DNA of 64,000 nt, taken from contig NZ_FNVQ01000001.1 of the NCBI RefSeq assembly GCF_900108065.1, forward strand, positions 744,001-808,000, read 5' to 3'. Source of the DNA: Marinobacterium lutimaris (GTDB taxonomy: Bacteria > Pseudomonadota > Gammaproteobacteria > Pseudomonadales > Balneatricaceae). The notes below the pieces were generated by a model that had not been told where the DNA came from, did no database searches, and saw only the letters and a program-made list of their open reading frames with translations. The position numbers were made by a program, and so were the translations under genes. Positions 45,722 through 62,866 of this stretch are shown in pieces (positions within the stretch are counted from its first letter, which is position 1; each line of letters starts with the position of its first letter).

Positions 45722-46870
45722 ATGGCTAAGTTTCTTCACACCTCTGATTGGCATATTGGCCGTTTATTCCAGAATATTTCGCTTCTCGATGACCAGTTGC
45801 ATGTATTAAAGCAGATCCATCGCTATGCGGCGGAACATCAGGTCGATGCCCTGGTGGTTGCCGGCGATATCTATGACCGTTCCGTGCCACCGGCGGATGC
45901 CGTGGATGCACTGAATGCCTTTCTTGCGCGTTTCACTGAAGAGCTTTCCATTCCGGTGATTATGATCTCCGGTAACCATGACAGCGCGAAACGGCTGCGT
46001 TTTGGCGCCCAGTTCATGTCCGGCGCGGGTGTGCATATCCTTGGCGATATCCGCAAGGTCGCCACACCGGTCGAGGTGCAGACACAAACCGGCGCGATCC
46101 AGTTTTTCGGTATTCCATACCACGATCCGGTGGAGGTGAGGGAAGCGTTCGACGTGGAGGTGAAAACCTACGACGAGGCGCATACCCATCTGGCCGAGCT
46201 GGCAGCGCAGGCGCGCAGCGCCGATGTTCCCGCCGTATTGATCAGCCACTGTTTTATCGATGGTGCCGAGGAGAGCGACTCTGAGCGTCGTCTCTCCATT
46301 GGCGGCGCGGACCGGGTTTCCTATCAGTCGCTTCAAAGCTTTGATTACGTGGCCCTGGGCCATCTGCACGCGCCGCAATACAAGGGGGCGGAGCATATCC
46401 GCTATAGCGGCTCGCTGCTGAAGTACTCCTTCTCTGAACATAAACAGCGCAAGGGCGTGACCCTGGTGGAGATCGGCGAGCAGGGCACCTCCTGGGAACA
46501 TCTGCCGCTGATCCCCCGACGCGATATGCGCGTGATCGAAGGGACGCTTGCAGAGCTGGTTGAGCAGGGGCGCAGTGATCCTCACGCCGATGACTACATT
46601 CTTGCTCGCCTGACCGACAAACAGGATCTGCTTGAGCCCATGGCGCAGCTGCGCCAGGTGTATCCGAATACGCTGGAGCTGGAGCGCACTCAGTTCAGCG
46701 TCTCCCACGGCAGCCAATTGGTGGCTGATGTCAGTGCCAAACGCAGTGAAGACCTGGTGTTCAAGGACTTCTTCACCCAGGTGATGGGCGATGAGCTGAC
46801 CGAGGAGCAGAACAAGCTGCTGCTGGAGGTGATCAATGAAGCCCAGGCCGCCATGGAAGGACAGGAATGA
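45722..46870 (+). CDS. sbcD: DNA repair exonuclease subunit SbcD
   Basis: This 382-residue Mre11-type nuclease has the phosphoesterase motifs HTSDWHIGR, VVAGDIYDR, SGNHDS and ALGHLHAPQ, which bind two metal ions. With SbcC it trims hairpins and protein-blocked DNA ends. The ATG at 45722 follows AAGGAAGG. Its stop overlaps the sbcC start (ATGA). Confidence 0.95.
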   Translation: MAKFLHTSDWHIGRLFQNISLLDDQLHVLKQIHRYAAEHQVDALVVAGDIYDRSVPPADAVDALNAFLARFTEELSIPVIMISGNHDSAKRLRFGAQFMSGAGVHILGDIRKVATPVEVQTQTGAIQFFGIPYHDPVEVREAFDVEVKTYDEAHTHLAELAAQARSADVPAVLISHCFIDGAEESDSERRLSIGGADRVSYQSLQSFDYVALGHLHAPQYKGAEHIRYSGSLLKYSFSEHKQRKGVTLVEIGEQGTSWEHLPLIPRRDMRVIEGTLAELVEQGRSDPHADDYILARLTDKQDLLEPMAQLRQVYPNTLELERTQFSVSHGSQLVADVSAKRSEDLVFKDFFTQVMGDELTEEQNKLLLEVINEAQAAMEGQE

Positions 46871-49800
46871 AACTGCACCAGTTAACATTGACCGCCTTTG
46901 GCCCGTTCGCCGGCAAGGAACAGATCGATTTTGCCCGGCTCGGCAACAACCCGCTGTTCCTGATCGACGGTCCCACGGGTGCCGGTAAGTCCTCCATTCT
47001 GCACGCGGTCTGCTACGCGCTGTATGGCGAAACCACCGATTCCGAGCGCAAGGAGCTGGGTATCCGCTGCGACTACGCCGAGCCCGAGACGCTGACCGAG
47101 ATCGAACTTGAATTCAGCATCCGCGGCCAGCGCTACCGTATCCATCGTGTGCCAACGCAGATGCGCCCGGCCAAACGTGGCGGTGGTGAGACCGAGCAGA
47201 AAGCTACCGCACATCTGCTGCGTATCGCCGACGACGGCAGCGAAGAGACCCTGGTACCGAAAAAGAAAACCGATGCCGATGTTCGCATTAAAGAGATTCT
47301 TGGCCTGACGGCGGACCAGTTCCGTCAGGTGATGGTGCTGCCCCAGGGCAAATTCCGCGAGTTGCTGCTGGCCAAGTCCGACGATCGTCAGGCGATCCTG
47401 TCGACCCTGTTCCAGACCGAGATCTACCAGCGCATCGAACAGCTGCTGAAAGATCGTGCAGGGGATATCGAGCGCCAGCACAAGAAGTTCGAAGACAGCA
47501 AAACCGAAGCGCTGCTGGAGCTGCATCTGGAGGATGTGGACGCGCTGATCGAGGCGATTGCCACTGCGGGCGAAACCGTTGCGGCGAAGAATCAGGTCAA
47601 GTCCGACGCTTACACCCTCAAGAGCGTGCAAGAGCAGAAGCTGAAATCGGCTGAAACGCTGACAAAGAGCTTTGAACAGCAAAGGCTCAAGCAGCAGGAG
47701 CTGGCTGAGCGTCAGTCGCGTAAACCCGCCGTTGATAATGCGCGCGACAAACTTCGCCGCGCGGAAAAAGCGGCTGCCATAGCACCGGAGTGGAAGGCGT
47801 TACGGGTACTGGATCAGCAGATTCAGAAGCGACAGGAAGAGCACGAGCGAGCGGCAGTTACCGCCCAGCAGGCCTCAGCCGAAGCGGTATCAGCCACAGA
47901 ACATCTCAAAGCCACAGAAGAGAGCTACAAACAGCGTGATGGGTTAAAAACGACAGAGGTGCGCCTGACTGGCTATCAAAAGGTGCTGGCCGGCTATGAA
48001 TCCCTGAGGGATGAGGTGCGTAAGGCAAACGCAGCCCAGGCTAGTGCCGCCGCCAGAATGAGCGAGCTCGAGCAGGGTATTGCAAGGTTCGACGAGTCGT
48101 TGAAAGAGCGCAATGCCGAGATTGAAACGCTCACCGGGCAGGTCGGCCAGAAGGCCGAGCTTACCGAGCAGTTGCTGAGTGCCAGGCGCCGTTGGGAGCT
48201 GGCCGTCAAACTCGATGGCGCTCTGGCTGAGCAAACCAGGCGTGAGCAGGCGGTTACCGAGGCTCAGGCGGCGCTGGATCAGGCGAACAGGGCGCATCAA
48301 CAAGCCAGCACCCAGGCGGATCGTCTGGAGATGATCTGGTTTGCCAACCAGGCGGCCGTACTGGCAAGAAAGCTGGAACTGGACCATCCCTGTCCGGTTT
48401 GCGGCAGCCTGGAACACCCCAATCCCGCGCAGTTTGCGGACGATTCCGCGCAGGTTGATCAGGATGCGGTCGAACAGGCCCGAGCCATCGCCAGTGCTCG
48501 TCTGACCGACCGTCACACTGCCGAGACGCGCGTGGCTGAGCAGCAAAGTGCCGTGCAGAACCAGCAGCAGTTGATAGCGGAGCTCCGGAATGAGCTGGAA
48601 GTCGATCTGTTCTTTTCGGCAGAAGCGTTGAAGGATGAGTATGCGCGGCTCGAGCAACAGCTCAATCAGATCGGTGCCTGCGAACAGAGACTGGATTCGC
48701 TTAAAGCTATACACAAATCGGAGGAGTCCAAGCGTGAGCTCCTCCAGGTTGAGCAAACGGAACTCAACAGGACGCTGCCGAAGCTGTCTGGCGATAAAGC
48801 CGCGTCCGAGAGTCGCCTGATCTCCGCCGAAAACGAACTGCCGGAGAACTATCGCAGCCTGAATGCGCTGAGTACGGCGATTCGCGATACTCAGCTGGCT
48901 ATCGAGAAACTGGAGCAGGCCTATCAGGCGGCGCAGAAGCGCCATTCAGAAGCATCCAACCGTTTAACGGCGGCAAACTCGGCACTGGATTCGCTGACGC
49001 GACAGCTCGATGAGCTACAGGGCAACCGGGCGGGGCAACTCAAAGCCTGGCAGAACGCTCTGTCCGAGAGTGAATTTGAATCCCTGTCTGACTTTGAAGC
49101 TAGCCTGATGGACGAGGCCTCGGCCGAGACGTTGCGCGCCCGCATCGTCCAGTACGACGAAACGGTGAAGACACTGCAGGCGCAGCTGGCATTGATGGCA
49201 GAGCAGCTGAAAGATCAGCCGCCGCCGGAGCTTGAAACGCTGCAAGAGCGCTATCAGGTGGCGGAAAGCGCCTATCAGCAGGCCGAGCATAGCTGGGCCG
49301 AGGCCCAACAGCAGAAAGCACTGTTTGAGCGAACCTTGGTGAAGATCCGTTCACTGGAGGAGCAGCAGCAAGCGGTGAAGCAGCAGTACGAAGTGGTCGG
49401 CAAAATGGCGAAAGCAGCCTCAGGCAGAGGGGAAGTACGCGTCAGCCTGGAGCGCTTCGTGCTCGGCAACCTGCTGGGCTCGGTACTCAGCGTGGCCAGC
49501 CAGCGCCTCTATACCATGAGCAAGGGGCAATACCGCCTGGTGCGCCAGAACGAGACCGAGCAGAAGCGCAATGTTACCGCAGGTCTCGACCTGGCCATCG
49601 ACGACGCCTACAGCGGCAAGGCGCGCCCGGTGGCGACCCTGTCCGGGGGGGAGTCGTTCATGGCCTCGTTGTCATTGGCACTGGCGCTCTCTGAAGTGGT
49701 GCAGCAGCGCTCCGGCGGTATCCAGCTGGATACACTGTTTATCGACGAAGGCTTCGGTAGCCTCGACCAGGATTCCCTGCAACTGGCCATCGATATGCTG

Positions 49801-49932
49801 GTGGAACTCCAGGCCACCGGCCGCACCATCGGTATTATCTCCCACGTCTCTGAGTTGAAGGAGCAGATGCCGCTGCGAATCGATGTGAAGAGCGGGCGGA
49901 ACGGCAGCTACGTTTTGATGAGCCAGGCTTGA
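46867..49932 (+). CDS. sbcC: DNA repair exonuclease subunit SbcC
   Basis: This 1021-residue Rad50-type ATPase has Walker A DGPTGAGKSSIL near residue 36, long coiled coils on both sides of a zinc hook (Cys509-Pro-Val-Cys512), the ABC signature LSGGESFMASLSLALAL and Walker B LDTLFIDEGFGSLD near the C-terminus. It partners SbcD, whose gene overlaps by four bases. Its length matches E. coli SbcC (1048). Confidence 0.95.
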   Translation: MKLHQLTLTAFGPFAGKEQIDFARLGNNPLFLIDGPTGAGKSSILHAVCYALYGETTDSERKELGIRCDYAEPETLTEIELEFSIRGQRYRIHRVPTQMRPAKRGGGETEQKATAHLLRIADDGSEETLVPKKKTDADVRIKEILGLTADQFRQVMVLPQGKFRELLLAKSDDRQAILSTLFQTEIYQRIEQLLKDRAGDIERQHKKFEDSKTEALLELHLEDVDALIEAIATAGETVAAKNQVKSDAYTLKSVQEQKLKSAETLTKSFEQQRLKQQELAERQSRKPAVDNARDKLRRAEKAAAIAPEWKALRVLDQQIQKRQEEHERAAVTAQQASAEAVSATEHLKATEESYKQRDGLKTTEVRLTGYQKVLAGYESLRDEVRKANAAQASAAARMSELEQGIARFDESLKERNAEIETLTGQVGQKAELTEQLLSARRRWELAVKLDGALAEQTRREQAVTEAQAALDQANRAHQQASTQADRLEMIWFANQAAVLARKLELDHPCPVCGSLEHPNPAQFADDSAQVDQDAVEQARAIASARLTDRHTAETRVAEQQSAVQNQQQLIAELRNELEVDLFFSAEALKDEYARLEQQLNQIGACEQRLDSLKAIHKSEESKRELLQVEQTELNRTLPKLSGDKAASESRLISAENELPENYRSLNALSTAIRDTQLAIEKLEQAYQAAQKRHSEASNRLTAANSALDSLTRQLDELQGNRAGQLKAWQNALSESEFESLSDFEASLMDEASAETLRARIVQYDETVKTLQAQLALMAEQLKDQPPPELETLQERYQVAESAYQQAEHSWAEAQQQKALFERTLVKIRSLEEQQQAVKQQYEVVGKMAKAASGRGEVRVSLERFVLGNLLGSVLSVASQRLYTMSKGQYRLVRQNETEQKRNVTAGLDLAIDDAYSGKARPVATLSGGESFMASLSLALALSEVVQQRSGGIQLDTLFIDEGFGSLDQDSLQLAIDMLVELQATGRTIGIISHVSELKEQMPLRIDVKSGRNGSYVLMSQA

Positions 49933-50247: not shown

Positions 50248-52320
50248 TCAGCGGTAACTGACCGATTTGAAGCCCAGCGCTGAACGCTTATCGGCCAGCA
50301 CAGTGATCAGCTTTCTGATAATCGCTTCCATGGAACTTCCCGGCGGAAAAACCGCATCGACGCCCATCGCGGTGAGGGCCGGGATATCCTGATCGGGAAT
50401 AATACCGCCAACAAACACGCCCAGTCGGTCGCAGGATTGCGGCCCAAGTGTATTGAGCAGCTGCTCTACCAGCGGCAGGTGAGCGCCGGATAGCAGCGAG
50501 ATACCCAGGGCATCGTAGGGGGCTGAATCGAGCATGCGCTGCACCTGCTCTGGCGTGCTGAATAGTGCACTGATATCCACGTCAAAACCTGCATCCTTGA
50601 GCCCTGAGGCAACCAGGCGAACGCCACGGTCGTGGCCATCGAGCCCCAGTTTTACCAGCAGGGCGCGGGGCGCTCGGCCCAACAGTTGGTGGTAGGCATC
50701 AACCTCCCGGCGGACGCTGCGCCACTGGGTATCCTGGCGACGCTCCAAGCCATAGCGGCCGGCGAGGTAATGCGCATCTGCCTGATGGCGACGCATCTGT
50801 TTCAGCAGGGCCTGGGTGCACTCGCCAAGCGTGGCGCGGGCGCGGATCGCCTCAATGGTGAATGCCAGCAGGTTGGCCGTTGGCGAAGCGGCGGCCGTGG
50901 TAAGATCGGCCAGCGCCGCTTCTACCCGCGAGGTGTCGCGCGTCTCTTTTAGCCGTTGCAGGCGCTGGCGCTGCTGATGCAGTACCTCGTCGGCATCGAT
51001 AGCGCGCACAGGCGGGCGAGCCTCATCATCGCTGACAAAACGGTTAACGCCGATAATCGGCCGCTGGCCGTTGTCGATACGGCTCTGGGCTCTCAGTGCC
51101 TGGCCGTGGATCTGCTCGCTGACCCAGCCTGATTCCAGCGCGGCCAGAATGCCGCCCATGGCATCGATCTGGCGAAGGTAATCGCGCACTTTATCGGCCA
51201 TCTGCTGGGTCAGGGATTCCATCATGTAGGAGCCGCCCCAGGGGTCGGCCACATCGCAGATGCCGGTTTCCTGTTGCAGAATCAGCTGGGTGTTACGTGC
51301 CAGGCGCGCGGAGTGCTCTGTCGGCAGTGACAGCGCTTCGTCGTAGGCGTTGGTGTGCAGCGACTGGGTGCCGCCAAAGACGCCGGCCATCGCTTCGATG
51401 GTAGTACGAATCAGGTTGTTGTGTGGCTCCTGCGCGGTCAATGACCAGCCGGAGGTCTGGCAGTGCATCTTCATCCGCTTGGCGCGATCCGATCTGGCGC
51501 CGCGATGTTCAACCTCTTCGCACCAGAGCAGGCGCGCCGCCCGCAGTTTGGCGATTTCATCAAAAAAGTTCATGCCAACGCCGAAGAAGAAGCTGAGCCG
51601 GTGGCAGAAATGATCCAGATCCAGACCCCGCGCGCTGATCGCATCCAGGTAGGCGCGGGCGTTCGCCAGTGTCAGTGCCAGCTCCAGCGCGGGTTCTGCT
51701 CCCGCTTCCTGAAAGTGATAACCGGAGATCGACATGCTGTTGAAGTTAGGCAGTGCGTGGCTCAGATAATCCACCACATCGGCGCAGATCCGCAGCGAAG
51801 GCTTGGGTGCAAAGATATAGGTGTTGCGCACCATGAACTCTTTGAGAATATCGTTCTGAATGGTGCCGCGCAGCTGCTCGCGGGCCACGCCGCTCTCTTC
51901 GCCGGCGACGATAAACGCGGCCATGATCGGCAGTACCGCACCGTTCATGGTCATCGACACCGACACACGGCTGAGGTCGATGCCAGCAAACAGTCGCTTC
52001 ATATCCTCAACGCTGTCGATCGCTACACCGGTGCGCGCCACATCGGCCTGGGCGGCGGGGTGGTCGGAATCAAAGCCCAGGTGCGTTGCCAGGTCAAAAG
52101 CGACGGATAGCCCCTGACCACCCTCAGCCAGCGTCTGCTTGAATGCGGCGTTGGAGGCTTCAGCATTGGCAAAGCCGGTGTACTGGCGAATCGTCCAGGG
52201 CTTGTGCCGATACATCTGCGTAAACGGACCGCGCAGAAATGGCGCTTCGCCCGGGCGACTGTGTTGATACTCCAGATGGCGAATATCATCGGCACTGTAA
52301 AAAGGTTTGCGCTCTACCAT
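50248..52320 (-). CDS. Methylmalonyl-CoA mutase (fused large and B12 domains)
   Basis: This 690-residue enzyme has the mutase barrel followed by a C-terminal B12 domain (KLGLDGHDRG near residue 563, SLLSGAHLP, VGGIIPDQD). The residues that separate methylmalonyl-CoA mutase from isobutyryl-CoA-type enzymes appear conserved: Tyr47 in TIRQYTGF and Arg165 in EFMVRNTY, with the same 118-residue spacing as I recall for Tyr89/Arg207 of the Propionibacterium enzyme. It should interconvert succinyl-CoA and methylmalonyl-CoA. No epimerase or MeaB chaperone gene is in the window. The ATG at 52320 overlaps the end of the LnmK-like gene, tying it to the Nit1C operon. Confidence 0.88.
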   Translation of the reverse strand: MVERKPFYSADDIRHLEYQHSRPGEAPFLRGPFTQMYRHKPWTIRQYTGFANAEASNAAFKQTLAEGGQGLSVAFDLATHLGFDSDHPAAQADVARTGVAIDSVEDMKRLFAGIDLSRVSVSMTMNGAVLPIMAAFIVAGEESGVAREQLRGTIQNDILKEFMVRNTYIFAPKPSLRICADVVDYLSHALPNFNSMSISGYHFQEAGAEPALELALTLANARAYLDAISARGLDLDHFCHRLSFFFGVGMNFFDEIAKLRAARLLWCEEVEHRGARSDRAKRMKMHCQTSGWSLTAQEPHNNLIRTTIEAMAGVFGGTQSLHTNAYDEALSLPTEHSARLARNTQLILQQETGICDVADPWGGSYMMESLTQQMADKVRDYLRQIDAMGGILAALESGWVSEQIHGQALRAQSRIDNGQRPIIGVNRFVSDDEARPPVRAIDADEVLHQQRQRLQRLKETRDTSRVEAALADLTTAAASPTANLLAFTIEAIRARATLGECTQALLKQMRRHQADAHYLAGRYGLERRQDTQWRSVRREVDAYHQLLGRAPRALLVKLGLDGHDRGVRLVASGLKDAGFDVDISALFSTPEQVQRMLDSAPYDALGISLLSGAHLPLVEQLLNTLGPQSCDRLGVFVGGIIPDQDIPALTAMGVDAVFPPGSSMEAIIRKLITVLADKRSALGFKSVSYR

Positions 52321-52322
52321 GC

Positions 52323-53201
52323 TCACCCCCGGTTGGCCCAGCGATATTCCGCGCCGTTCAGGCGCTGTTTACGGGTCAGGATATCGGCGATCTTCTGACC
52401 GTCTGAGTCCCGGCGCACGCTGAGCCAGTGCAGCAGCGTGCGTTCATCGGATTTCAGCGTGGCGAAGCTCAGGTGCAGCGCATCGCCGATATTGATATTG
52501 CCGTAGTAGTTCAACTGCCGGTCGGCGATCTGCCACAGCTGGCGATTGCGATTCCAGCTCCACTCGGCGCGGTCGGCAGCGGCCTGGAAATTGGCGAAGT
52601 AGAGAAAGTCTGCGCCGTTAAAATCGTTATGGGGGCAGGGGTGGTGAATGATACCGGGCAGCTTGGCGCAGGTGTCGGGCCTGAGTTCCAGCCACTCCTG
52701 CCAGTGTTCGTTGCGAAAGGCTTTGGCGGAGTCCGCCAGCCTGATCGCTTGCGCGTTCAGTGTCAGTCGTGCATCGCTGGCTGAGTCAGTCGAAGTCTCA
52801 GTGGCCAGCTCGGTACGCACTACACTCTGGTTGTTGCCCGCTTCCCGCCGGCTCACCTGGGTCGAGAGCATCTCCACCCGCGCACAGGTTTGGCCATTGC
52901 AGAGCAGTTGATGGCTGCTGAAGAAACGCGCCCGGCCGATGGGGATCAGGCGGGTTTCGATGCAGAACTGATCGTTTTCGTTGATCAGCTGCAAACGGGC
53001 ATCATCCAGCTTTACCGCCACAAAGGCGGCATAAACCGGTGAGCCATCCGGCGCCCTGAAATCCGGCAGGGTTTCGCCGAACTGCTTTGCCAGCACGAAC
53101 CAATGCTGATTGCCGCACTCCTTGAGCAGCCAGTTCTCACTCAAGCCGCACAGGGACAGGTTGGGCATGCCGGCGATAAATTGCGCGTTACAGCTGATCA
53201 T
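52323..53201 (-). CDS. LnmK-like double-hotdog protein (probable acyl-CoA transferase/decarboxylase)
   Basis: This 292-residue protein resembles LnmK of leinamycin synthesis and the related Pnap_2097-type proteins: MISCNAQFIAGMPNLSLCGLSENWLLKECGNQHWFVLA at the start and ADFLYFANFQAAADRAEWSW in the second hotdog half. LnmK decarboxylates methylmalonyl-CoA and loads propionyl on a carrier protein. The mutase encoded next could supply that substrate, a strong contextual match. No carrier protein gene is visible. The ATG at 53201 has GGAG upstream and lies 16 bases after nitH. The family assignment comes from memory of sequence patterns and needs a profile search. Confidence 0.65.
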   Translation of the reverse strand: MISCNAQFIAGMPNLSLCGLSENWLLKECGNQHWFVLAKQFGETLPDFRAPDGSPVYAAFVAVKLDDARLQLINENDQFCIETRLIPIGRARFFSSHQLLCNGQTCARVEMLSTQVSRREAGNNQSVVRTELATETSTDSASDARLTLNAQAIRLADSAKAFRNEHWQEWLELRPDTCAKLPGIIHHPCPHNDFNGADFLYFANFQAAADRAEWSWNRNRQLWQIADRQLNYYGNINIGDALHLSFATLKSDERTLLHWLSVRRDSDGQKIADILTRKQRLNGAEYRWANRG

Positions 53202-53217
53202 CGCGTCATCTCTCCAT

Positions 53218-54522
53218 TCAGGCCGTGACGGCGTCCTTGGCGTTAGCGCCACTTTTCACCTGCGCCTGATAGCGCTCGATCTGATGGGCCAGATGTTCTG
53301 CGTCTTGGCGTACGCCGGAGAAGCGCCCGGAGCCCCAGGTGTGCAACCAGGGCAGGCCGATAAAGTAGAGGCCCGGTTGCTGGGTGACGCCGCGCTCATG
53401 CTTGGGATGGCCCTGGCCATTGAACACGGCGGCATCCAGCCAGGCGAAATCGGGACGGAAACCGATGCACCAGAGAATACTGGTGATGCCCGAGTCAGCC
53501 AGGTTAAGCGAGGTACGCTCCTGTTGCAGCTCCCACACCGGGGTGTAAATGGAGGGACCTTCCTCGGTTTCGATGCCCTGTTTTTCGATCCAGGCATCAA
53601 TGCGGGCGTTGATGTTGTTGAGGGTGGCGTCCGCCTTGTTCAGGTTGTCCGCTAGGTTGGGCTGGAAGATCAGGTTTTCACCATCAAACTCGCTCATCAG
53701 GCCGTAGAGCTCCATCCCTTCCTTGGCGAATTCACGCAGGTCGATATCGCGACCGCCATCACGGCCGGTGACGTAGTGGTTGGTGTTGTTGCGAACGTTC
53801 TTGCCCAGCGGATGTTCGTTGACGGATATCTGGTAGTAACCCATGTCGTCCAGCCACTCCACCACATCCTTGCCACGGTAGAAGCGTGAGACGCGCGGCG
53901 CATTGCCGGTGGCGAGGAACACCTTGCGCCCGGACAGGTGCAGATCTTCGGCGATCTGCGCGCCCGACTGGCCTGAGCCCACCACCAACACGGCACCTTC
54001 GGGGAACTGGTCGGCGTTCTTGTACTGCGCCGAGTGCATCTGAAACACCGCTTGCGGCACCCGTTCCGCCATCCGCGGAATCACCGGAATGTGGTAGCCA
54101 CCGGAGGCGACCACAACCTGGTCGGCACTGAAGTCGCCGTGCGAAGTACAGAGCTGGTACACGCCGTCAGCGTCGGTCTCAACGCTATTGACGCTCACGC
54201 CTTCACGCACCGGGGCGTTCACCTTCGCGGCAAAGCGCTCCAGGTAGCCGATGGTTTCATCGCGGGTCATAAACCCTTTGGGGTCATCGCCATCATAGGG
54301 GTGGCCGGGCAGGTCGCACTGCCAGTTGGGCGTTACCAGGGTGAAGGCGTCCCAGCGCTCGTTTTTCCAGCCATGCATCAGGGTGTTCTTCTCAAGCACG
54401 AGGTGGTCAATCTGCAACTGCTTAAGGAAGTAGCTGATCGACAGGCCCGCCTGGCCTGCGCCGATAACAATAACGGGGTAGTGCGGTTTGGTTGTTTGCT
54501 CGTTACTCATGTGGGTATCCAT
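53218..54522 (-). CDS. nitH: Nit1C flavin-dependent oxidoreductase (MSMEG_0569 family)
   Basis: This 434-residue flavoprotein has two dinucleotide-binding motifs: VIVIGAGQAGLSISYFLKQ near residue 19 and LVVGSGQSGAQIAEDL in the middle, plus VVVASGGYHIP. The pattern WKNERWDAFTLVTPNWQCDLPGHPYDGDDPKGFM is characteristic of this Nit1C family, which resembles N-hydroxylating and Baeyer-Villiger monooxygenases. Its reaction is not known. Start codons at 54522 and 54510 are both plausible. It lies downstream of nitG and upstream of the LnmK-like gene. Confidence 0.87.
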   Translation of the reverse strand: MDTHMSNEQTTKPHYPVIVIGAGQAGLSISYFLKQLQIDHLVLEKNTLMHGWKNERWDAFTLVTPNWQCDLPGHPYDGDDPKGFMTRDETIGYLERFAAKVNAPVREGVSVNSVETDADGVYQLCTSHGDFSADQVVVASGGYHIPVIPRMAERVPQAVFQMHSAQYKNADQFPEGAVLVVGSGQSGAQIAEDLHLSGRKVFLATGNAPRVSRFYRGKDVVEWLDDMGYYQISVNEHPLGKNVRNNTNHYVTGRDGGRDIDLREFAKEGMELYGLMSEFDGENLIFQPNLADNLNKADATLNNINARIDAWIEKQGIETEEGPSIYTPVWELQQERTSLNLADSGITSILWCIGFRPDFAWLDAAVFNGQGHPKHERGVTQQPGLYFIGLPWLHTWGSGRFSGVRQDAEHLAHQIERYQAQVKSGANAKDAVTA

Positions 54523-54553
54523 TGTCTTTACTGAGTCTTTATCGGTTGTCGGT

Positions 54554-54838
54554 TCAGGAGATGTGGGTGATCTCAATCTCGGGGTGCTCGCTGGCTTCAA
54601 AACGCGCGGCTTTTGCCTTGATGACAGCCAGCTGGTCCATGGAGCTGGAGCAGGCGTAGCCAAATTTCTGCTCGACGCGCTGGCTGGCGGAATCGAGCGC
54701 CACCTCGGCTTTGCTGACGAACTCGGCCAGTGGCATTGTGTCACCCGTCTTGAAGTGGTCGCGCACCACGGTCGAGGGGGAGTAGCAGCTGTCTTCGCTG
54801 CCGTCGGGCCAGCGGACGTTGAAGTTAATTGCGGGCAT
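54554..54838 (-). CDS. nitG: Nit1C small protein (MSMEG_0570 family)
   Basis: This 94-residue protein matches the small 'nitrogen starvation response' family found in Nit1C clusters: MPAINFNVRWPDGSEDSCYSPSTVVRDHFKTGDTMPLAEFVSKAEVALDSASQRVEQKFGYACSSSMDQL. Function is unknown. It is conserved with the nitrilase cluster in distant phyla, which supports a direct role. AGAAG precedes the ATG. Confidence 0.87.
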   Translation of the reverse strand: MPAINFNVRWPDGSEDSCYSPSTVVRDHFKTGDTMPLAEFVSKAEVALDSASQRVEQKFGYACSSSMDQLAVIKAKAARFEASEHPEIEITHIS

Positions 54839-54908
54839 TTTTACTTCTCCATCAATGTCTTAGGGGCATATTCAAAGGTATTGTTTAAGGCATTGTTTAA
54901 AGGCGTCG

Positions 54909-55892
54909 TCAGGGCGCTGAGGCCGTGTCGCTCTCCGGGCGAAACCCCATCAGCGGTTGGCTGCCAAGGTCGCGCACCTGCACCTTTTGCGCGTCATGCC
55001 TCACCCAAAGCTGTTTGTCATCGGTGATTGTGCCGATGGCTGAGGCGCTGATATCACGGCTGTGGAATAGCCCCAGCAGCGCTGGCAGTGACGCCTGATC
55101 TGTCGTCAGCAGGTAGCCAAAGCTTGGGAAAGCGCAGAGCCAATCAGCCCAGCTGACGCCTTGTGGTTTTTCAATCGCATCCAGCTCGATGCGCGCGCCC
55201 ACGCCAGAGCTCTCCAGCAGCATCAGCGCGGTGCCGATCAGCCCCGCCTGGCTGATATCCTTGGCGGCGCTGGCAAGCCCTCGCTCGGCGATTTCGGGTA
55301 GTAGTGCGATATCACCGCGCAGGCGTTGGGCCGGTGCCTGCGTGGCGGCGTTCCAGTTGAGGTAGGGCGCACGGAAAGCGCCCCGATGGTCGATGGCGGC
55401 GACCAGCACCTGCCCGGGTTGTGCCGCAAACGCACTGAGCAGCTGTTTCGCCTGGCCGAGAATAGAAACGGCCAGTTGCGCTTGATTGGCGCGCAGGTTG
55501 GTGTGGCCGCCGATAATCGGTACGCCGAATGTTTCGGCGGCGGCACTCATGCCGGCGAAAATCTGCTGGGCGTGATCGATATCGTGATTCCAAAGCGCGT
55601 TGACCACCGCCAACGGCCGCCCGCCCATGGCGGCGATATCGCTGATATTGACCATCACGCCACACCAGCCGGCAAACCAGGGGTCCTGTTCAACAAAGGC
55701 GTTCAGAAACCCCTCCATCGCCAACAGTGAGTAACCCTCGGGGCCGGGAATCGCCGCTGCGTCATCGCCGTTGGGGTGCCAGCCTTGCGGCAGCGGTGGC
55801 AGTTGTGGAGCCAGCCGGGCGATATCCTCTTTATGGGCGATGCCGGCGTACTGGCTCACCTGTGCCATCAGCGTGCGCAGCTCCATGCTCAT
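54909..55892 (-). CDS. nitF: Nit1C AIR synthase-related protein (Sll0787 family)
   Basis: This 327-residue protein has the PurM/ThiL/SelD-type fold: DDAAAIPGPEGYSLLAMEGFLNAFVEQDPWFAGWCGVMVNISDIAAMGGRPLAVVNALW near residue 43-101 supplies the ATP- and metal-binding acidic residues, then IIGGHTNLRANQAQLAVSILGQ. Such enzymes activate a carbonyl or amide with ATP; the Nit1C substrate is unknown. Its start overlaps the nitE stop by four bases. Confidence 0.87.
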   Translation of the reverse strand: MSMELRTLMAQVSQYAGIAHKEDIARLAPQLPPLPQGWHPNGDDAAAIPGPEGYSLLAMEGFLNAFVEQDPWFAGWCGVMVNISDIAAMGGRPLAVVNALWNHDIDHAQQIFAGMSAAAETFGVPIIGGHTNLRANQAQLAVSILGQAKQLLSAFAAQPGQVLVAAIDHRGAFRAPYLNWNAATQAPAQRLRGDIALLPEIAERGLASAAKDISQAGLIGTALMLLESSGVGARIELDAIEKPQGVSWADWLCAFPSFGYLLTTDQASLPALLGLFHSRDISASAIGTITDDKQLWVRHDAQKVQVRDLGSQPLMGFRPESDTASAP

Positions 55893-56488
55893 GCCTCTGT
55901 CTCCAGGGCGCGGGTCAGCTCAAGCAGTCCCGGTGCAATCTCCGCCGTTGAGCGGCGGTTACGAGCGCGCAGTACAAAACCGCCAAAGGGGGTGTGGCAG
56001 GGCGGATAGTGGCTGAGGTCCGCCTGCATGATGACGTGGGGCAGGTCACGCACGCTCTCTTCGCCGATGCGCGCCCAGTGCAGGCGACGGAACAGGGTTT
56101 CGTTCTGCGACTGCACCCGGGCCAGAAAGCAGCGACAACCCAGTGCATGGGCACTGGACACCGCCAGCTTGATCAGCGTGGCCCCGAGATAGCCCTGGGT
56201 ACGAAACGCCGGATCAACCGCCAGGCGTGAGCCGTACCAGATTCCCGGCTCCTCCTCATGGATGCGCACGGTGCCCACCACCTGCTCATGCCAGCCACCG
56301 TGACCGCCAAGCGCTACCAGCAGTTGTGCCGATTGATCGGTGAGATCCCGGTCGTCCTGCTCAAACAGCGACTGCTCGTCGCAGAACACGCGTCGGCGCA
56401 AGGCGTAGGCCTCGTTGGCCTCCCAATCGAGGCTGGCCCATTTAATGGTGTATTCGGAGTAGGCCGGATGGCGGTTTTTACTGGTCAT
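55889..56488 (-). CDS. nitE: Nit1C GNAT acetyltransferase (MSMEG_0567/Sll0786 N-terminal type)
   Basis: This 199-residue GNAT-fold protein has YALRRRVFCDEQSLFEQDDRDLTDQSAQ at the start, VVGTVRIHEEEPGIWYGSRLAVDPAFRTQGYLGATLIKLAVSSAHALG as the acetyl-CoA pocket, and FRRLHWARIGE. In some organisms this domain is fused to the AIR synthase-like domain; here the two are separate, overlapping genes. The ATG at 56488 is chosen for its GAGGG site. The acyl acceptor is unknown. Confidence 0.87.
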   Translation of the reverse strand: MTSKNRHPAYSEYTIKWASLDWEANEAYALRRRVFCDEQSLFEQDDRDLTDQSAQLLVALGGHGGWHEQVVGTVRIHEEEPGIWYGSRLAVDPAFRTQGYLGATLIKLAVSSAHALGCRCFLARVQSQNETLFRRLHWARIGEESVRDLPHVIMQADLSHYPPCHTPFGGFVLRARNRRSTAEIAPGLLELTRALETEA

Positions 56489-56504
56489 AGCGAAACCCTC
56501 ACAC

Positions 56505-57605
56505 TCAGTGTTCGTACTCGGACAGGGTGGAGCAGGCACCGCAGCGGCCGCAGCCCGCCTTGATATCGCTGGAGCGCATGCTCGCCCGCTGCAGGCGTTT
56601 GCCCAGAGGCGCCAGGATCGACTCCATAAACTCGCTGCCGGGCGGTGTCAGATCTTCCAGCGGCGTACCGGTGATCGGCACGAACGGCACCACGAAGGGG
56701 TAAACGCCGATCTCGATCAGCTGCTCGCAGATCTCAAGAATCGCCTCCTTGCTATCCCCAAGGCCCGCCAGGATGTAGGTGCTGACCTGGCCACGACCAA
56801 AGACTGCAACCGCATCGCGAAAGGCCAGCAGATACTCCTCGATGGAAACCTCCGCCTTACCCGGCATCAGCTCCTTGCGCAGCTCAGGGGTTACCACCTC
56901 CAGATGCATACCGAGGGTGTCGATACCGGCATCCTTCATGCGCTGATACCAGATGGGATCATTGGGCGGTTCGCACTGGGCCTGCAGTGGCAGATCCACC
57001 GCCGCGCGGATCGCCTGCGCACTCTCGCAGAGAATGGCGGCACCACGATCTGCGGTCGCAGGCGTCCCGGTGGTCATCACCATGTGCTGCACGCCATCGA
57101 GTTCAACCGCGGCTTTTGCCACTTCAGCCAGTTGCTGCGGTGTTTTACGGGCGATGGTGCGACCCGCCTGCAGCGACTGACCGATCGAGCAGAACTTGCA
57201 TGCCTTGCGCCGGCTCTCATAGCGGATACAGGTTTGCAGCACGGTGGTGGCGAGCACGTCCTTGCTGTGCAGCGTGGCTATCTGCGAGTAGGGGGTGCCA
57301 TCCTCGGTGCTGAGATCGTAAAAACGCGGTGTCTCGGCAAAGGTGATATCCGCCAGCGGAATCGCATTCTCGACCAGCCGGTGACCGCTCTCGTCGGACT
57401 CCACTGCAAAAGGGGAGCGCCAGGCCGACTGGGTATAGATCGGTACCATCAGTGTGGTGCCATCGATGGTCACCGCCTGATGATCGGAAGGGCCGGCACC
57501 GCCACGGCGGCTAACGTGGTCCTGATCGACACTGTTCAGGCGCAGACCCCGTGTCTGCAGCTCAGTAATCAAATGCTGGCGCTGGGTTGACTTGCTTGGG
57601 CTCAT
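56505..57605 (-). CDS. nitD: Nit1C radical SAM protein (MSMEG_0568 family)
   Basis: This 366-residue radical SAM protein matches the Nit1C family. The cluster region reads [18 protein letters not shown], giving Cys-x9-Cys-x2-Cys rather than the common x3-x2 spacing. It is followed by a barrel resembling lipoyl synthase/biotin synthase ([38 protein letters not shown]) and a C-terminal CGRCGAC cysteine cluster. Its substrate is unknown. The start at 57605 (or 57608) has AAGGAG upstream and overlaps nitC by 44 bases. Confidence 0.9.
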
Positions 57606-58572
57606 CATCGGCTCCTTGGAGGCTTTCATCCGCAGTGGGGGCAAGTGGACGGCTATAGCGGGCGGGCTCGTCGTTGATCGCCAGGCTCAGCAGTTCAGGG
57701 CGCGCGTAGTGGCCAACGGAATCCATCATCCGTTTGCGCTTGGTAATGAGGCTGAAATCGAGATCGGCAATCACCAGCCCTTCACCCTCGGTCAGCGGCG
57801 TCGCCAGGTGCTTACCCTCCGGCGAGATAATGGCTGTGTTGCAGCCGTCGCGCAGGGCTTGCTGCAGCTTCTCGTCAGGGGTGATCGACTCGATCTGCTC
57901 GTCATGCAGCCAGCCGGTGGAGTTGACCACGAAACAGCCGGACTCCAGTGCGTGGTGGCGAATGGTCGCTTCGATCTGATCGGCAAACACGGGGCCGACC
58001 AGTGAGCCGGGGAACTGGCTGCAATGGATCTGCTCATGCTGGGTCATCAGTGCATAGCGGGCCAGCGGGTTGTAGTGCTCCCAACAGGCCAGTGCACCGA
58101 CCCTGCCGACGGCGGTATCGGCAACCTTGAGGCCCGCGGCGTCGCCCTGGCCCCAGATCATTCGCTCATGGTAGGTGGGCGTGATCTTGCGGCGCTTAAG
58201 CAGCAGTTTGCCGTCAGCGTTAAAGATCAGCTGGGTGTTGTAGAGGCTGCCGTGATCACGTTCGTTCACGCCAAGCACGACCACCATGGCGTGCTTGTGG
58301 GCACGCTCGGCTACCGCGTCGGTGATAGGCCCCGGCACCACAACCGCTTCTTCATACAGACGCAGGTGCTCGGCGCCGCAGGCCACGGCGGGGTATACAA
58401 AAGAGAAGTAGGGATAGTAGGGGACAAAGGTCTCCGGAAAGACGATCAATTCGACGCCTTTCGCGGCCGCTTCATCCATTGCATTCAGTACATTGGCCAG
58501 CGTGCCGTTCGCGCTCCGAAGATCCGGAGCAATCTGAACGGCAGCGGCCCGTACCACTTTAGAGGTGGTCAT
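57562..58572 (-). CDS. nitC: Nitrilase (Nit6803 type)
   Basis: This 336-residue enzyme hydrolyses nitriles to carboxylic acid and ammonia. The catalytic set is Glu47 ([12 protein letters not shown]), Lys129 ([12 protein letters not shown]) and Cys163 ([12 protein letters not shown]). The same spacing occurs in the Synechocystis Nit6803 enzyme, offset by six residues. It is the signature gene of Nit1C clusters, reported in Pseudomonas to be needed for growth on cyanide as nitrogen source. It lies between nitB and nitD. Confidence 0.94.
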
Positions 58573-58586
58573 GGCCGCTACGCTCC

Positions 58587-59069
58587 TTACAGGGTCCAGG
58601 TATCGAGGATGACCGCGTTGTCGCGCATGTGCAGGAGTTTCAGGTCCATCACATCCAGCGGATTGATCGGGCGGATCCCCTCAACCAGAGACGGCTCGCC
58701 GTGGCCATAGAGCGCCTGCAGGGCAAAGCGGCAGGCGTACACCTTGCCGCCTTCCGCCATGAACTTCTTCAGCTGGTTGGCGTAGTTCTGATGACCCGGG
58801 AACGCTTCATCACCGATGGTGGGGAAGCCACGCTGCAGACCCAGGGTAACGCCGGGTCCGTAAAGCAGAATGGAAGTCTCGTAGCCTTTGCGCTGCAGGC
58901 GGGTAGCCTGAAGCATGTTGACCAGGCCGATGGAGCCTTCAAAGGCAACGGTATGGAAGGTCACCAGCGCTTTTTCGCCAGGTTTCGCCTGAACATCTTC
59001 AAACACTTTCTCTTCGTAATCGACGAAGAAATCACCGGCTTTGTGCTGTGGCTGGGTTACGGTTGGCAT
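58587..59069 (-). CDS. nitB: Nit1C nitrogen-starvation protein (MSMEG_0572/Sll0783 family)
   Basis: This 160-residue protein ([75 protein letters not shown]) belongs to a DsrE-like family first noted for induction under nitrogen starvation in Synechocystis (Sll0783). The molecular role is unknown. It is the first gene of the cluster, 15 bases before nitC, and is transcribed from the region holding the ATGCAATCAAT repeats. Confidence 0.92.
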
Positions 59070-59199: not shown

Positions 59200-59427
59200 G
59201 ATTGGTGTCTAACTCAAAAATCGGATAAAAAATTCAGATGCATGCGTTTTGTATATTATGCATATTTTCTAATTTAACTGACTGATTGTGCAGTATTAGT
59301 GCGTTAAGTCTCTATATGCTCTCTGTTGGGGCGCTCTATCCAATCAATTGGTTATTGTCGGTAGATATTTTCGATATAACAAATGGAGTAGAATGCCTGG
59401 TTGCAACTATCCGATTTATATAAAGAG

Positions 59428-59438
59428 TTGATTGCATT
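59428..59438. promoter_or_regulatory. ATGCAATCAA motif at the mocR start codon
   Basis: TTGATTGCATT is the reverse complement of the repeated motif and ends one base before the MocR start codon, which suggests autoregulation. Confidence 0.55.
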
Positions 59439-59439
59439 A

Positions 59440-60840
59440 ATGAGTACACACGAGCTTCAGCGTTGGCGCCATCGGTTGGAATCAGAGAAAGGGACGCCTG
59501 CTTATCGCCTGATTGCCGATCTGATAGAAGAAGACGTCGATAGCGGTCGTCTTCAAGCAAGGGACCGGCTGCCCACCCTGCGTGATCTGGCCTCGGCAGT
59601 CGGTATCAACTACACCACGGCGGCGCGAGCCTACAACGAAGCTCGGGCACGGGGATTGATCGACTCTCATCCCGGCTCTGGCACCTTTGTGAAGGGAAGG
59701 ACAGTTAGCGTTCAGCCCAGCCGAGGTGACTATGAGATGACCATGAACCTGATGATCGAGCCGTCGATTCCGACGCTGGTGGAGCAGGTGCGTGACAGCG
59801 CGATTTCGGTGATGGCGCAACATGATCTGTACTCCATGCTGCGCTATCAGGCGTTTGGCGGCTCTCCACGTTCGAAAGAGGCGGCGCTTAAATGGCTGGA
59901 TCAGCGACTGAGTCGTGCGGTGCCTGAGCAGGTGCTGGTCTGCCCCGGTATTCACAGCGCGCTGGTGGGGCTACTCACTAAACTGGTCGATCCCGGTAAG
60001 CTGGTATGCGTCGAAAGCCTGGCCTATCCCGGCATTAAAGCGATCGCGGCGCAGCTGGGGCTGACCCTGCACTCACTGGAGCGCGATGCCGATGGCCCGC
60101 TGGTGCGCCCGTTTGAGGAGGTGTGCAAGCAGGGTAACGTCGCCGTGCTGTATCTGAACCCGACCATTCAAAACCCGACCACCACGACGATTCCTCAGAG
60201 CCGCCGCGAGGCGCTGGCAGATGTGGCGCTGCGCTACAGCATTCCGATCATTGAAGATGATGCCTATACCTTGCTGAGCGAAGAACCGGTGACCCCGATC
60301 GCCGATCTGGCGCCGGAGCTGACCTACTACATCATGGGTACGGCGAAGTGCTTTGGGCCTGGGCTGCGCTCTGCGTTTGTGCATGCACCTTCGCGCCGTC
60401 AGGCGCAGCGCTTTGCCGGCGCCATGCGCGCGCTCTATGTGATGTCGAGCCCGCTGGTGGATGAGCTGGTGAGCAGCTGGATTCTGGATGGTACCGCGGA
60501 GGCGATGCGCAAGGCGATCCGCAACGAAGCGATCGCACGGCTGAAACTGGCCGAACAATACCTGGGGCGCCAGCGTATCGCCTCGGCCAAAGGGGCCTTT
60601 CATCTCTGGCTGAAACTGCCGAAGGCATCGAACTGGAACCCCTCGGAACTGGCCGTTCAATTGCGGGGTCACGGCGTCAGTGCGGTATCGAGCGCAGCAT
60701 TCAGCACCGATAACAACCCGCCGGACGCACTGCGGCTATGCTTTGGTGGTCCGATCAGTCGCGACATATGGGAAGAGGGGCTACAGCATGTGGCCGACCT
60801 TATCGATCAGCCCGCCTACCTGTCATCACTGACAACCTGA
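59440..60840 (+). CDS. MocR-family regulator (GntR HTH plus aminotransferase-like domain)
   Basis: This 466-residue protein has an N-terminal GntR winged helix ([66 protein letters not shown]) and a fold-type I aminotransferase-like domain with the PLP lysine Lys303 in [11 protein letters not shown] and [10 protein letters not shown] upstream. MocR proteins sense PLP or amino-compound ligands. It is divergent from nitB and shares repeated motifs with its promoter, so it probably regulates the Nit1C operon. thyA starts 13 bases after its stop. Confidence 0.9.
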
Positions 60841-61838: not shown

Positions 61839-62864
61839 TCAGTGATACGCGTCTTCAGCGCTCACCTTGCCGCGGAACACATAATAGGACCAGGCGCTGT
61901 ACATCAGGATGATCGGGATGATCACCAGCGCGCCGACCAGCGCAAATCCCTGGCTGGCAACGGGGGAGGAGGCTTCCCATATGTCGATGCCCGGAGGCCA
62001 GAAATTGAGGGCGGGTGGAATCACGTTGGGCCACAGGCTGATACCAAGACCGATAAACCCAAGCATCACCACCACCAGCGTCATCAGGAAGGGCGTCGCT
62101 TCGCCCTGTTTCACCGAGCACAGCAGCCACACGCAGGCGAGCAGCGTCACAATCGGCAGCGGCGCTAGCCAGTAGAGGTTGGGCAGACTAAACCAGCGCT
62201 CGGCGATTGCCGGATGTCCCAGCGGCGTCCAGATCGACACCACCAGCATAAACACCAGCAACATGATGACCAGCGGGTAGGTCAGGCGACGCATCAGGCT
62301 CTGCAACAGGCCGTCGGTTTTCATGATCAGCCAGGTACTGCCCAGCAGTGCATAGGTTGCCGATAGTGCGACACCGCAAAACAGCGAGAATGGGCTGATC
62401 CAGTCCCAGGCGGTGCCGGCAAACTGCCCATCCACAACGCGGATACCGTTGAGGTAACTACCGAGGGTGACCCCCTGAGAAAAGCTCGCCAGCAGGGAGC
62501 CGGCAAAAAACGCCTTGTTCCACAGATGGCGGCTGGCGTCGCTGGATTTAGCCCGCGCCTCAAACGCCACGCCGCGCAGTATCAGGCCGATCAACATAAA
62601 CACAATGGGAAGATAGAGGGCGCTGAGCACCACCGCATAGGCCAGCGGGAACGCCGCCATCAATGCCGCGCCTCCCAGTACCAGCCAGGTTTCGTTGCCA
62701 TCCCAGATGGGTGCCACGCTCGCCATCATGCGATCGCGATCTTTTTCGCCGTTAACAAAGGGGAAGAGTAGCCCCACGCCCAGGTCAAAGCCGTCGGCGA
62801 TGACGTAGAGCATGACACCGACGAGGATGATGACGGCCCAGATAGCCGCAGTATCGATACCCAT
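61839..62864 (-). CDS. cioB: Cyanide-insensitive bd-type quinol oxidase, subunit II
   Basis: This 341-residue membrane protein has about nine hydrophobic helices and the CydB/CioB N-terminus AAIWAVIILVGVMLYVIADGFDLGVGLLFPF, then DGNETWLVLGGAALMAAFPLAYAV and FFAGSLLASFSQGVTLGSYLNGI. It forms the oxidase with subunit I, whose stop codon is two bases from its start. The CIO type is inferred from the short Q-loop of subunit I and the DUF2474-like partner. Confidence 0.9.
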   Translation of the reverse strand: MGIDTAAIWAVIILVGVMLYVIADGFDLGVGLLFPFVNGEKDRDRMMASVAPIWDGNETWLVLGGAALMAAFPLAYAVVLSALYLPIVFMLIGLILRGVAFEARAKSSDASRHLWNKAFFAGSLLASFSQGVTLGSYLNGIRVVDGQFAGTAWDWISPFSLFCGVALSATYALLGSTWLIMKTDGLLQSLMRRLTYPLVIMLLVFMLVVSIWTPLGHPAIAERWFSLPNLYWLAPLPIVTLLACVWLLCSVKQGEATPFLMTLVVVMLGFIGLGISLWPNVIPPALNFWPPGIDIWEASSPVASQGFALVGALVIIPIILMYSAWSYYVFRGKVSAEDAYH

Positions 62865-62866
62865 GG

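What the first reader, a model, noticed from the sequence alone, without database searches (positions are those of the whole stretch)
50248..59069. Nit1C cluster extended by an LnmK-like protein and a methylmalonyl-CoA mutase
nitBCDEFGH, LnmK-like and mutase genes run in one direction with overlaps or short gaps, so they look like a single operon. Nit1C is linked to cyanide/nitrile nitrogen use. A mutase that makes methylmalonyl-CoA next to an enzyme family known to decarboxylate methylmalonyl-CoA and transfer propionyl suggests an acyl-transfer branch. This could mean Nit1C builds or degrades an acylated nitrile-containing metabolite rather than only hydrolysing a simple nitrile.
Basis: partly seen in the sequence, partly recalled or inferred. 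Interest (0 to 1): 0.78.

Follow-up and report, generated by a model that had tools for sequence, protein, structure and literature searches.

The report
Cyanide-linked cluster with acyl-supply module
A widespread bacterial gene cluster tied to cyanide use carries, in many species, two extra genes that probably make a three-carbon acyl group from a central metabolite and hand it on, which gives a testable clue to what this unexplained cluster does.

Summary
Confirmed. The window (a Marinobacterium relative) holds a complete Nit1C cluster (nitBCDEFGH), then an LnmK/Pnap_2097-family gene and a methylmalonyl-CoA mutase gene, with no gap over 70 bp. The linkage recurs: of 65 distinct Nit1C loci compared, 20 carry LnmK+mutase, 22 LnmK alone, 23 neither, none the mutase alone. 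Where the mutase is in the cluster it is the genome's only PF01642 mutase in 12 of 13 genomes; where the cluster has LnmK without it, a full-length mutase lies elsewhere in 13 of 13. Cluster-mutase genomes lack methylmalonyl-CoA epimerase (0 of 12 over cut-off) and a convincing MeaB. The mutase therefore most likely turns succinyl-CoA into (2R)-methylmalonyl-CoA for the LnmK-like enzyme. The predicted fold matches LnmK best, and the tyrosine aligned with LnmK Tyr62 is invariant. The acyl-transfer module is well supported as comparative inference; a nitrile-containing product is not shown, no carrier-protein gene was recognised, and the acceptor is unknown. A 2016 paper (PMC4751646) lists a Nit1C operon ending in a hypothetical protein and this mutase, and NCBI annotates both genes; the functional logic was not found in print. 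New variant of a known kind.

The parts
58587..59069 (-). nitB, MSMEG_0572/Sll0783 family (DsrE-like)
   Evidence: TIGR04044 284 bits, cut-off 109.85
57562..58572 (-). nitC, Nit6803-family nitrilase
   Evidence: TIGR04048 580 bits, cut-off 502.6
56505..57644 (-). nitD, radical SAM protein (start uncertain)
   Evidence: TIGR04043 579 bits, cut-off 303.7
55889..56488 (-). nitE, GNAT N-acyltransferase
   Evidence: TIGR04045 224 bits; AlphaFold/Foldseek GNAT fold
54909..55892 (-). nitF, AIR-synthase-like protein
   Evidence: TIGR04049 429 bits, cut-off 321.3
54554..54838 (-). nitG, MSMEG_0570 family, 94 aa
   Evidence: TIGR04042 120 bits, cut-off 79.85
53218..54522 (-). nitH, flavin-dependent oxidoreductase
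   Evidence: TIGR04046 659 bits, cut-off 498.35
52323..53201 (-). LnmK-like acyltransferase/decarboxylase (Pnap_2097 family), 292 aa
   Evidence: TIGR04099 310 bits, TIGR04098 260 bits; PDB profile hit LnmK 2e-10; Foldseek best hits LnmK
50248..52326 (-). methylmalonyl-CoA mutase, B12-dependent (ATG at 52320 also possible)
   Evidence: NF006944 964 bits; PF01642 + PF02310; Y47/R165/Y201/H202 conserved
59401..60840 (+). divergent MocR-type (GntR + aminotransferase) regulator; likely but unproven regulator of the cluster
   Evidence: PF00392 + PF00155; EhuR model 347 bits, below its cut-off of 480; similar divergent genes in many relatives

Best explanation
The last two genes form an acyl-supply module of Nit1C. 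The mutase (coenzyme B12) converts succinyl-CoA into (2R)-methylmalonyl-CoA. The LnmK-like double-hot-dog enzyme takes the methylmalonyl group from CoA, decarboxylates it and passes a propionyl group to an acceptor: either a cellular acyl carrier protein, from which NitE or another enzyme could draw, or directly a Nit1C intermediate. Shown by computation: gene identities, operon-like layout, recurrence, mutase never without LnmK, complementary placement of the mutase, absence of epimerase and MeaB, LnmK fold with the conserved tyrosine, mutase active-site residues. Inferred: direction of the mutase, use of (2R)-methylmalonyl-CoA, decarboxylation, propionyl transfer. Unknown: the acceptor and the final product.
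For: LnmK family and fold; Y57, aligned with LnmK Tyr62, invariant in 41 of 41 Nit1C copies aligned. Mutase substrate residues kept in 19 of 19 cluster mutases tested. 65 Nit1C loci: 20 LnmK+mutase, 22 LnmK only, 23 neither, 0 mutase only. Cluster mutase is the only PF01642 gene in 12 of 13 genomes; 13 of 13 genomes with LnmK but no mutase seen in the cluster have one elsewhere at 756 bits or more. Epimerase over cut-off: 0 of 12 cluster-mutase genomes, 5 of 6 others; MeaB at 350 bits or more: 0 of 12 and 5 of 6. Base rate of PF01642: 169 of 390 in the order, 12 of 23 Nit1C genomes without LnmK. A title in a reference list says that LnmK specifies (2R)-methylmalonyl-CoA.
Against: No enzyme was assayed. 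No carrier-protein gene was recognised in the cluster, and LnmK is known to load an ACP. Only 16-17 % identity to LnmK. 23 of 65 Nit1C loci lack the module, so it is not needed for the core function. The mutase residues checked do not separate methylmalonyl- from MeaA-type mutases (the two MeaA-like rows share them); the tree and the NF006944 cut-off do. One MAG (G756) has a second partial mutase. In one of the 13 'mutase elsewhere' genomes (L025) the contig ends just after LnmK. The compared genomes are related, so counts are not independent events; 7 of the 13 come from one order, where I did not measure the base rate. No MeaB-like partner was found for the cluster mutase.
Confidence: 0.6

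Rival explanations
1. The pair is a simple succinyl-CoA to propionyl-CoA route, like the E. coli Sbm operon (recalled): the LnmK-like enzyme only decarboxylates, releasing free propionyl-CoA for NitE or for general metabolism.
For: Same enzymes and same complementary pattern; no ACP gene recognised in the cluster; NitE's closest folds are CoA-dependent acetyltransferases.
Against: Genomes with a full housekeeping mutase, epimerase and MeaB keep the LnmK-like gene in Nit1C; such cells probably have propionyl-CoA already (inference). LnmK is described as an acyltransferase as well as a decarboxylase.
Confidence: 0.2
2. The mutase is catabolic: it carries methylmalonyl-CoA that arises from a Nit1C product or from propionate to succinyl-CoA, and the LnmK-like protein is a side or editing enzyme.
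For: Housekeeping mutases of this kind serve propionate breakdown (textbook). The sequence does not fix the direction.
Against: Epimerase over cut-off in 0 of 12 cluster-mutase genomes. The mutase is never present without LnmK in 65 loci.
Confidence: 0.1
3. The mutase and the LnmK-like protein act on another acyl-CoA pair (not methylmalonyl).
For: The LnmK-like protein is distant from LnmK (16-17 % identity). Cluster mutases form a group of their own, and all 12 gamma-proteobacterial ones change a housekeeping arginine to leucine. The residues checked are also shared by MeaA-like mutases.
Against: Y89/R207/H244 equivalents kept in 19 of 19; NF006944 equivalog cut-off passed; 13 of 13 clusters without a mutase of their own lie in genomes with an ordinary methylmalonyl-CoA mutase-type gene.
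Confidence: 0.07
4. Chance neighbours or hitch-hiking on a mobile stretch, without functional link.
For: The cluster lies on plasmids in several Burkholderiaceae, one of them typed conjugative.
Against: 39 of 42 LnmK genes start within about 200 bp of nitH over gamma-, beta- and alpha-proteobacteria, and no mutase-only locus was seen.
Confidence: 0.03

Closest known systems
Nit1C cluster (Podar 2005, PMC1199592; Pseudomonas CECT 5344, PMC11049912)
   Same: The same seven genes nitB-nitH in the same order as in Pseudomonas
   Different: Two further genes after nitH; a MocR-type instead of a sigma54-type (NitA) regulator; PMC11049912 reports no extra genes linked to Nit1C across Pseudomonas
Nit1C operon of the Atlantis II contig (PMC4751646, 2016)
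   Same: Listed gene order ends with FAD oxidoreductase, conserved hypothetical protein, methylmalonyl-CoA mutase
   Different: The hypothetical protein was not identified as LnmK-like, and no function was proposed in the passages seen
LnmK of leinamycin biosynthesis (PDB 4HZN, 6X7L-P)
   Same: Family models, double-hot-dog fold, aligned tyrosine
   Different: 16-17 % identity; no polyketide synthase and no dedicated ACP gene recognised here
E. coli Sbm operon (recalled, not tested)
   Same: A mutase paired with a methylmalonyl-decarboxylating activity, fed from succinyl-CoA
   Different: Unrelated decarboxylase fold, a MeaB-like partner, no Nit1C

Membership tests
Nit1C cluster | nitB to nitH, seven genes, one direction, in this order | tested here: met
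Nit1C cluster | Needed for growth on cyanide or nitriles | not testable with these tools
   needs mutants; known only from the literature (PMC11049912, passages)
LnmK bifunctional enzyme | Match to the curated family models | tested here: met
   TIGR04098 260 bits (cut-off 100) and TIGR04099 310 bits (cut-off 125); 18 of 18 relatives match both at E <= 0.001
LnmK bifunctional enzyme | Double-hot-dog fold like LnmK | tested here: met
   Model pLDDT 87.9; the seven best Foldseek hits are LnmK, TM 0.72-0.76
LnmK bifunctional enzyme | Tyrosine equivalent to Tyr62 (role recalled) | tested here: met
   Y57 aligns with it; 41 of 41 Nit1C copies
LnmK bifunctional enzyme | Dedicated ACP partner encoded nearby | tested here: not met
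   No ACP among the window's nine cluster genes or among the annotated cluster genes of relatives; a relative outside Nit1C has an annotated ACP (its NCBIfam ACP score is only 20 bits)
LnmK bifunctional enzyme | Methylmalonyl-CoA decarboxylation and propionyl transfer | not testable with these tools
   enzyme assay needed
Methylmalonyl-CoA mutase | Catalytic and B12-binding domains over the equivalog cut-off | tested here: met
   NF006944 964 bits, cut-off 876; PF01642 and PF02310
Methylmalonyl-CoA mutase | Substrate residues Y89, R207, H244 and the B12 axial histidine (roles recalled) | tested here: met
   Conserved; shared also by two MeaA-like rows, so not fully diagnostic
Methylmalonyl-CoA mutase | MeaB-type chaperone in the genome | tested here: not met
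   Only short P-loop pieces up to 27 bits in the window's genome; usual in such genomes but not part of the enzyme's definition

The most novel reading that the evidence does not exclude
Nit1C is a small biosynthetic pathway, and in these lineages its product carries an acyl group made by a dedicated B12-dependent detour (succinyl-CoA to methylmalonyl-CoA to propionyl). An LnmK enzyme would act here outside any polyketide or NRPS assembly line and hand the propionyl group to a nitrogen-bearing Nit1C intermediate, so that cyanide or nitrile handling depends on B12 and on the TCA cycle.
Probability: 0.3. Interest if true: 0.78.

Novelty: new variant of a known kind. Interest (0 to 1): 0.6.

Why it matters
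What Nit1C makes or breaks has been open since 2005. The module names a specific acyl donor, methylmalonyl-CoA, and a specific source, succinyl-CoA. This turns the question into isotope-tracing and single-enzyme experiments, and it predicts B12 dependence in the lineages that carry the mutase.

Tried and rejected
A carrier-protein gene inside the cluster: none recognised; the extra gene seen in some relatives is the MSMEG_0565 glycosyltransferase between nitF and nitG. NitE as a proven acyl-ACP user: not supported; the FeeM model matches 24 of 27 NitE proteins, but acetyl-CoA-type GNATs are the best Foldseek hits, with FeeM at rank 34. A gamma-specific Arg-to-Leu change as a mark of all cluster mutases: rejected when 6 of 7 plasmid copies had Arg. 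A substitute gene after nitH in the 23 LnmK-less clusters: none recurrent by eye; by mechanical ORF calls the next ORF is on the other strand in 16 of 23. A Nit1C setting for every family member: rejected; L090, L098 and L106 and the distant L032 and L033 lie outside Nit1C, and L034 gave no tblastn match.

In print (open-licence PMC papers only): 'Pnap_2097' gave 0 papers; a six-term search joining nit1C, LnmK, the mutase and the model names gave only PMC4751646; a five-term search put the same paper first. Searches listed Nit1C, LnmK and Nit6803 papers; of these I looked at passages of PMC8666670, PMC11049912, PMC1199592, PMC4751646, PMC6039565, PMC10098168, PMC9396626 and PMC9570651. No passage seen joins LnmK and Nit1C.

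Rows dropped before counts: L028 (same contig as L020) and L086 (same contig as L025) as duplicates; L032, L033, L034, L090, L098, L106 as not Nit1C. Of 60 plasmid records with a match I fetched 18. Residues and the mutase tree cover 19 of the 20 cluster mutases (L114 came later). The 23 LnmK-less loci all come from the window's own order, while the LnmK loci were found by LnmK, so 20:22:23 is not a prevalence; the less biased figure is LnmK in 2 of 25 nitC+ genomes of the order.
Full report
WHAT IS THERE. The window is position 744001-808000 of contig 18 of a 5.57-Mb genome. Its nearest named relative in the scan is Marinobacterium mangrovicola, with a 94 % identical LnmK-like protein. Nine genes run on the minus strand from 59069 to 50248: nitB, nitC, nitD, nitE, nitF, nitG, nitH, an LnmK-like gene and a methylmalonyl-CoA mutase. 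Every one passes the curated cut-off of its NCBIfam model. No gap exceeds 70 bp, LnmK-like and mutase overlap by 4 bp (or are 2 bp apart with the later ATG), and the consensus scan shows nothing that separates nitH from LnmK-like. Downstream, the next large ORF (46867-49932, plus strand) is convergent, so the run ends after the mutase. Upstream, a MocR-type regulator is divergent.

THE LNMK-LIKE PROTEIN. It scores 310 bits on TIGR04099 and 260 on TIGR04098, and 18 of 18 aligned relatives match both models. A single sequence finds LnmK in the PDB only weakly (E 0.007), but a profile of 18 relatives finds it at 2e-10, with the next other family at 0.0036. The AlphaFold model (pLDDT 87.9) has LnmK structures as its seven best Foldseek hits, at TM 0.72-0.76 and 16-17 % identity; acyl-ACP thioesterases follow. 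Y57, which falls on residue 62 of the LnmK chain 6x7l in the alignments, is invariant in all 41 Nit1C copies aligned, as are N124, N195 and N235. The catalytic role of Tyr62 is recalled. In leinamycin-type clusters this enzyme is proposed to transfer methylmalonyl from CoA to an ACP and decarboxylate it to propionyl-ACP (PMC9396626, passages). That LnmK is specific for (2R)-methylmalonyl-CoA I take from a paper title in a reference list; that paper is not held.

THE MUTASE. It is a full-length B12 enzyme. The residues equivalent to Y89, R207, Y243 and H244 of the Propionibacterium enzyme, read off the alignment (roles recalled), are kept in 19 of 19 cluster mutases and 8 of 8 housekeeping ones. 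Three other homologues differ at one or more of these sites, but two MeaA-like mutases keep all four, so the residues alone do not prove the substrate; the NF006944 cut-off and the tree, in which the MeaA-like rows stand apart (100/100), add to it. The 19 cluster mutases group together with modest support (81/61) next to the 8 housekeeping enzymes (96/99); in an earlier tree the 12 gamma-proteobacterial ones formed a clade at 98/100.

RECURRENCE. TIGR04099 passes its cut-off in 2 of 390 genomes of the order, 6 of 398 of the phylum, 11 of 150 in the order of G485 and 2 of 180 in the order of G755; the first two counts include the window's own genome, and each centre genome is counted in its order. 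Controls: 0 of 14 named genomes. Fourteen loci came from named genome records and 60 plasmid records have a match. After removing duplicates and non-Nit1C loci I compared 65 Nit1C loci: 42 with LnmK (20 of these with the mutase), 23 without LnmK, and none with the mutase alone. By tblastn positions 39 of the 42 LnmK genes start within about 200 bp of nitH; the exceptions are L031 and L095 (about 1.5 kb) and Methylocystis L104, where the cluster is rearranged and LnmK follows nitF. On a quick NitC+NitD+NitH tree the state 'neither' needs at least five changes, so the pair has been gained or lost several times, without a lone mutase in these loci.

COMPLEMENTARY PLACEMENT. I searched whole genomes for PF01642. 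Thirteen genomes have the mutase in the cluster; in 12 it is the only hit, and the exception is a MAG (G756) with a second, partial homologue about 36 % identical to the window's mutase. Thirteen genomes have LnmK in Nit1C with no mutase seen in the cluster; all 13 have a full-strength mutase elsewhere (756-805 bits). In one of these (Methylobrevis, L025) the contig ends just after LnmK, so a cluster mutase cannot be excluded. The base rate of any PF01642 gene is 169 of 390 in the order and 12 of 23 among Nit1C genomes without LnmK, and 8 of 20 in the order of G755; I did not measure it in the order of G485, from which 7 of the 13 come. None of the 17 other genomes listed from the window's own family has one. 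L022 is instructive: its LnmK falls in a 7-row group with six Marinomonas copies (100/100), all of which have the cluster mutase; L022 has none in the cluster, and its genome has mutase, epimerase and MeaB genes side by side elsewhere. Whether it lost the cluster mutase after or before the six split is unsure (80/39 in the LnmK tree; sister to all six in the Nit tree).

DIRECTION. Propionate breakdown through a mutase needs methylmalonyl-CoA epimerase, because carboxylation of propionyl-CoA gives the 2S and the mutase uses the 2R isomer (textbook knowledge). Over the family cut-off, epimerase is found in 0 of 12 cluster-mutase genomes (best 44 bits, cut-off 115) and in 5 of 6 genomes with the mutase elsewhere; the miss is a MAG. 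MeaB is found at 350 bits or more in 5 of 6 and in 0 of 12; short P-loop pieces at 23-28 bits formally pass Pfam's low cut-off in several genomes but are not MeaB. The G953 genome was not tested for either. The simplest reading is that the cluster mutase does not serve propionate breakdown but makes (2R)-methylmalonyl-CoA from succinyl-CoA for the LnmK-like enzyme. How it is protected without MeaB is open.

WHAT REMAINS OPEN. The acceptor of the acyl group is unknown. No carrier-protein gene was recognised in the window's cluster or in the annotated relatives, so a cellular ACP or a small Nit1C intermediate must serve. NitE is an N-acyltransferase of undecided donor. Outside Nit1C, relatives of the LnmK-like protein sit in a cluster with an annotated ACP and an acyl-AMP ligase (Thalassospira) and within about the first 270 residues of a polyketide-synthase-like protein (Streptomyces), which fits acyl loading. 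Nothing here shows that the product carries a nitrile.

PRIOR WORK. Podar 2005 (PMC1199592, passages) defined the seven genes. PMC11049912 (passages) ties Nit1C to cyanide assimilation and reports no extra genes linked to it across Pseudomonas. PMC4751646 (passages) lists a Nit1C operon with a conserved hypothetical protein and a putative methylmalonyl-CoA mutase at its end. PMC6039565 (passages) finds that deleting the M. smegmatis MSMEG_0565-0572 operon costs peroxide resistance under nitrogen starvation; by the family names this is a Nit1C relative. Annotated plasmids already name 'Pnap_2097 family protein' followed by scpA. New here are the recognition of the pair as one module and its complementary distribution; my searches turned up neither, within open-licence PMC papers.

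Noticed in passing
window 61839-64000 (continues to the right, L120); L014/L121, L024, L095, L104: Cytochrome bd-type oxidase genes (cydA/cydB; possibly the cyanide-insensitive type, recalled) lie 2.8 kb from nitB here. Matches near Nit1C occur also in M. mangrovicola, Marinomonas arctica, Methylorubrum extorquens AM1 and Methylocystis iwaonis; 6 of 74 loci searched match, counting the window's own and a duplicate, and none of the 23 LnmK-less ones, of which only about 4 kb upstream is held.
   Followed up: partly
window 59401-60840: Divergent MocR-type regulator, nearest to EhuR (347 bits, cut-off 480). Similar divergent genes flank many relatives, while L060 and L062-L065 have a longer, different protein of 637-648 aa there. 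It may sense an amine or amino acid.
   Followed up: partly
mutase residue 81, window 52078-52080: The housekeeping motif THRGYDSD reads THLGFDSD: leucine in 12 of 12 gamma-proteobacterial cluster mutases and 1 of 7 plasmid ones, arginine in 8 of 8 housekeeping mutases.
   Followed up: partly
L094, L097, L099, L102: Nit1C with LnmK and mutase on plasmids of Paraburkholderia, Burkholderia anthina and Caballeronia; the B. anthina plasmid is typed conjugative.
   Followed up: no
L098:12001-12795 and L106:11001-11774: LnmK-family stretch near the N-terminus of a Streptomyces ketosynthase protein, and a Pnap_2097 protein in a Thalassospira cluster with an annotated ACP and AMP-binding enzymes.
   Followed up: no
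L104 (Methylocystis iwaonis plasmid): A rearranged Nit1C: nitC-D-E-F-LnmK in one run, with glycosyltransferase, nitB and an FAD oxidoreductase several kb away beside cytochrome bd genes.
   Followed up: no
window 50248-52326 and the genomes: A B12-dependent mutase in genomes without a recognisable MeaB chaperone; how the enzyme is kept active is unclear.
   Followed up: no
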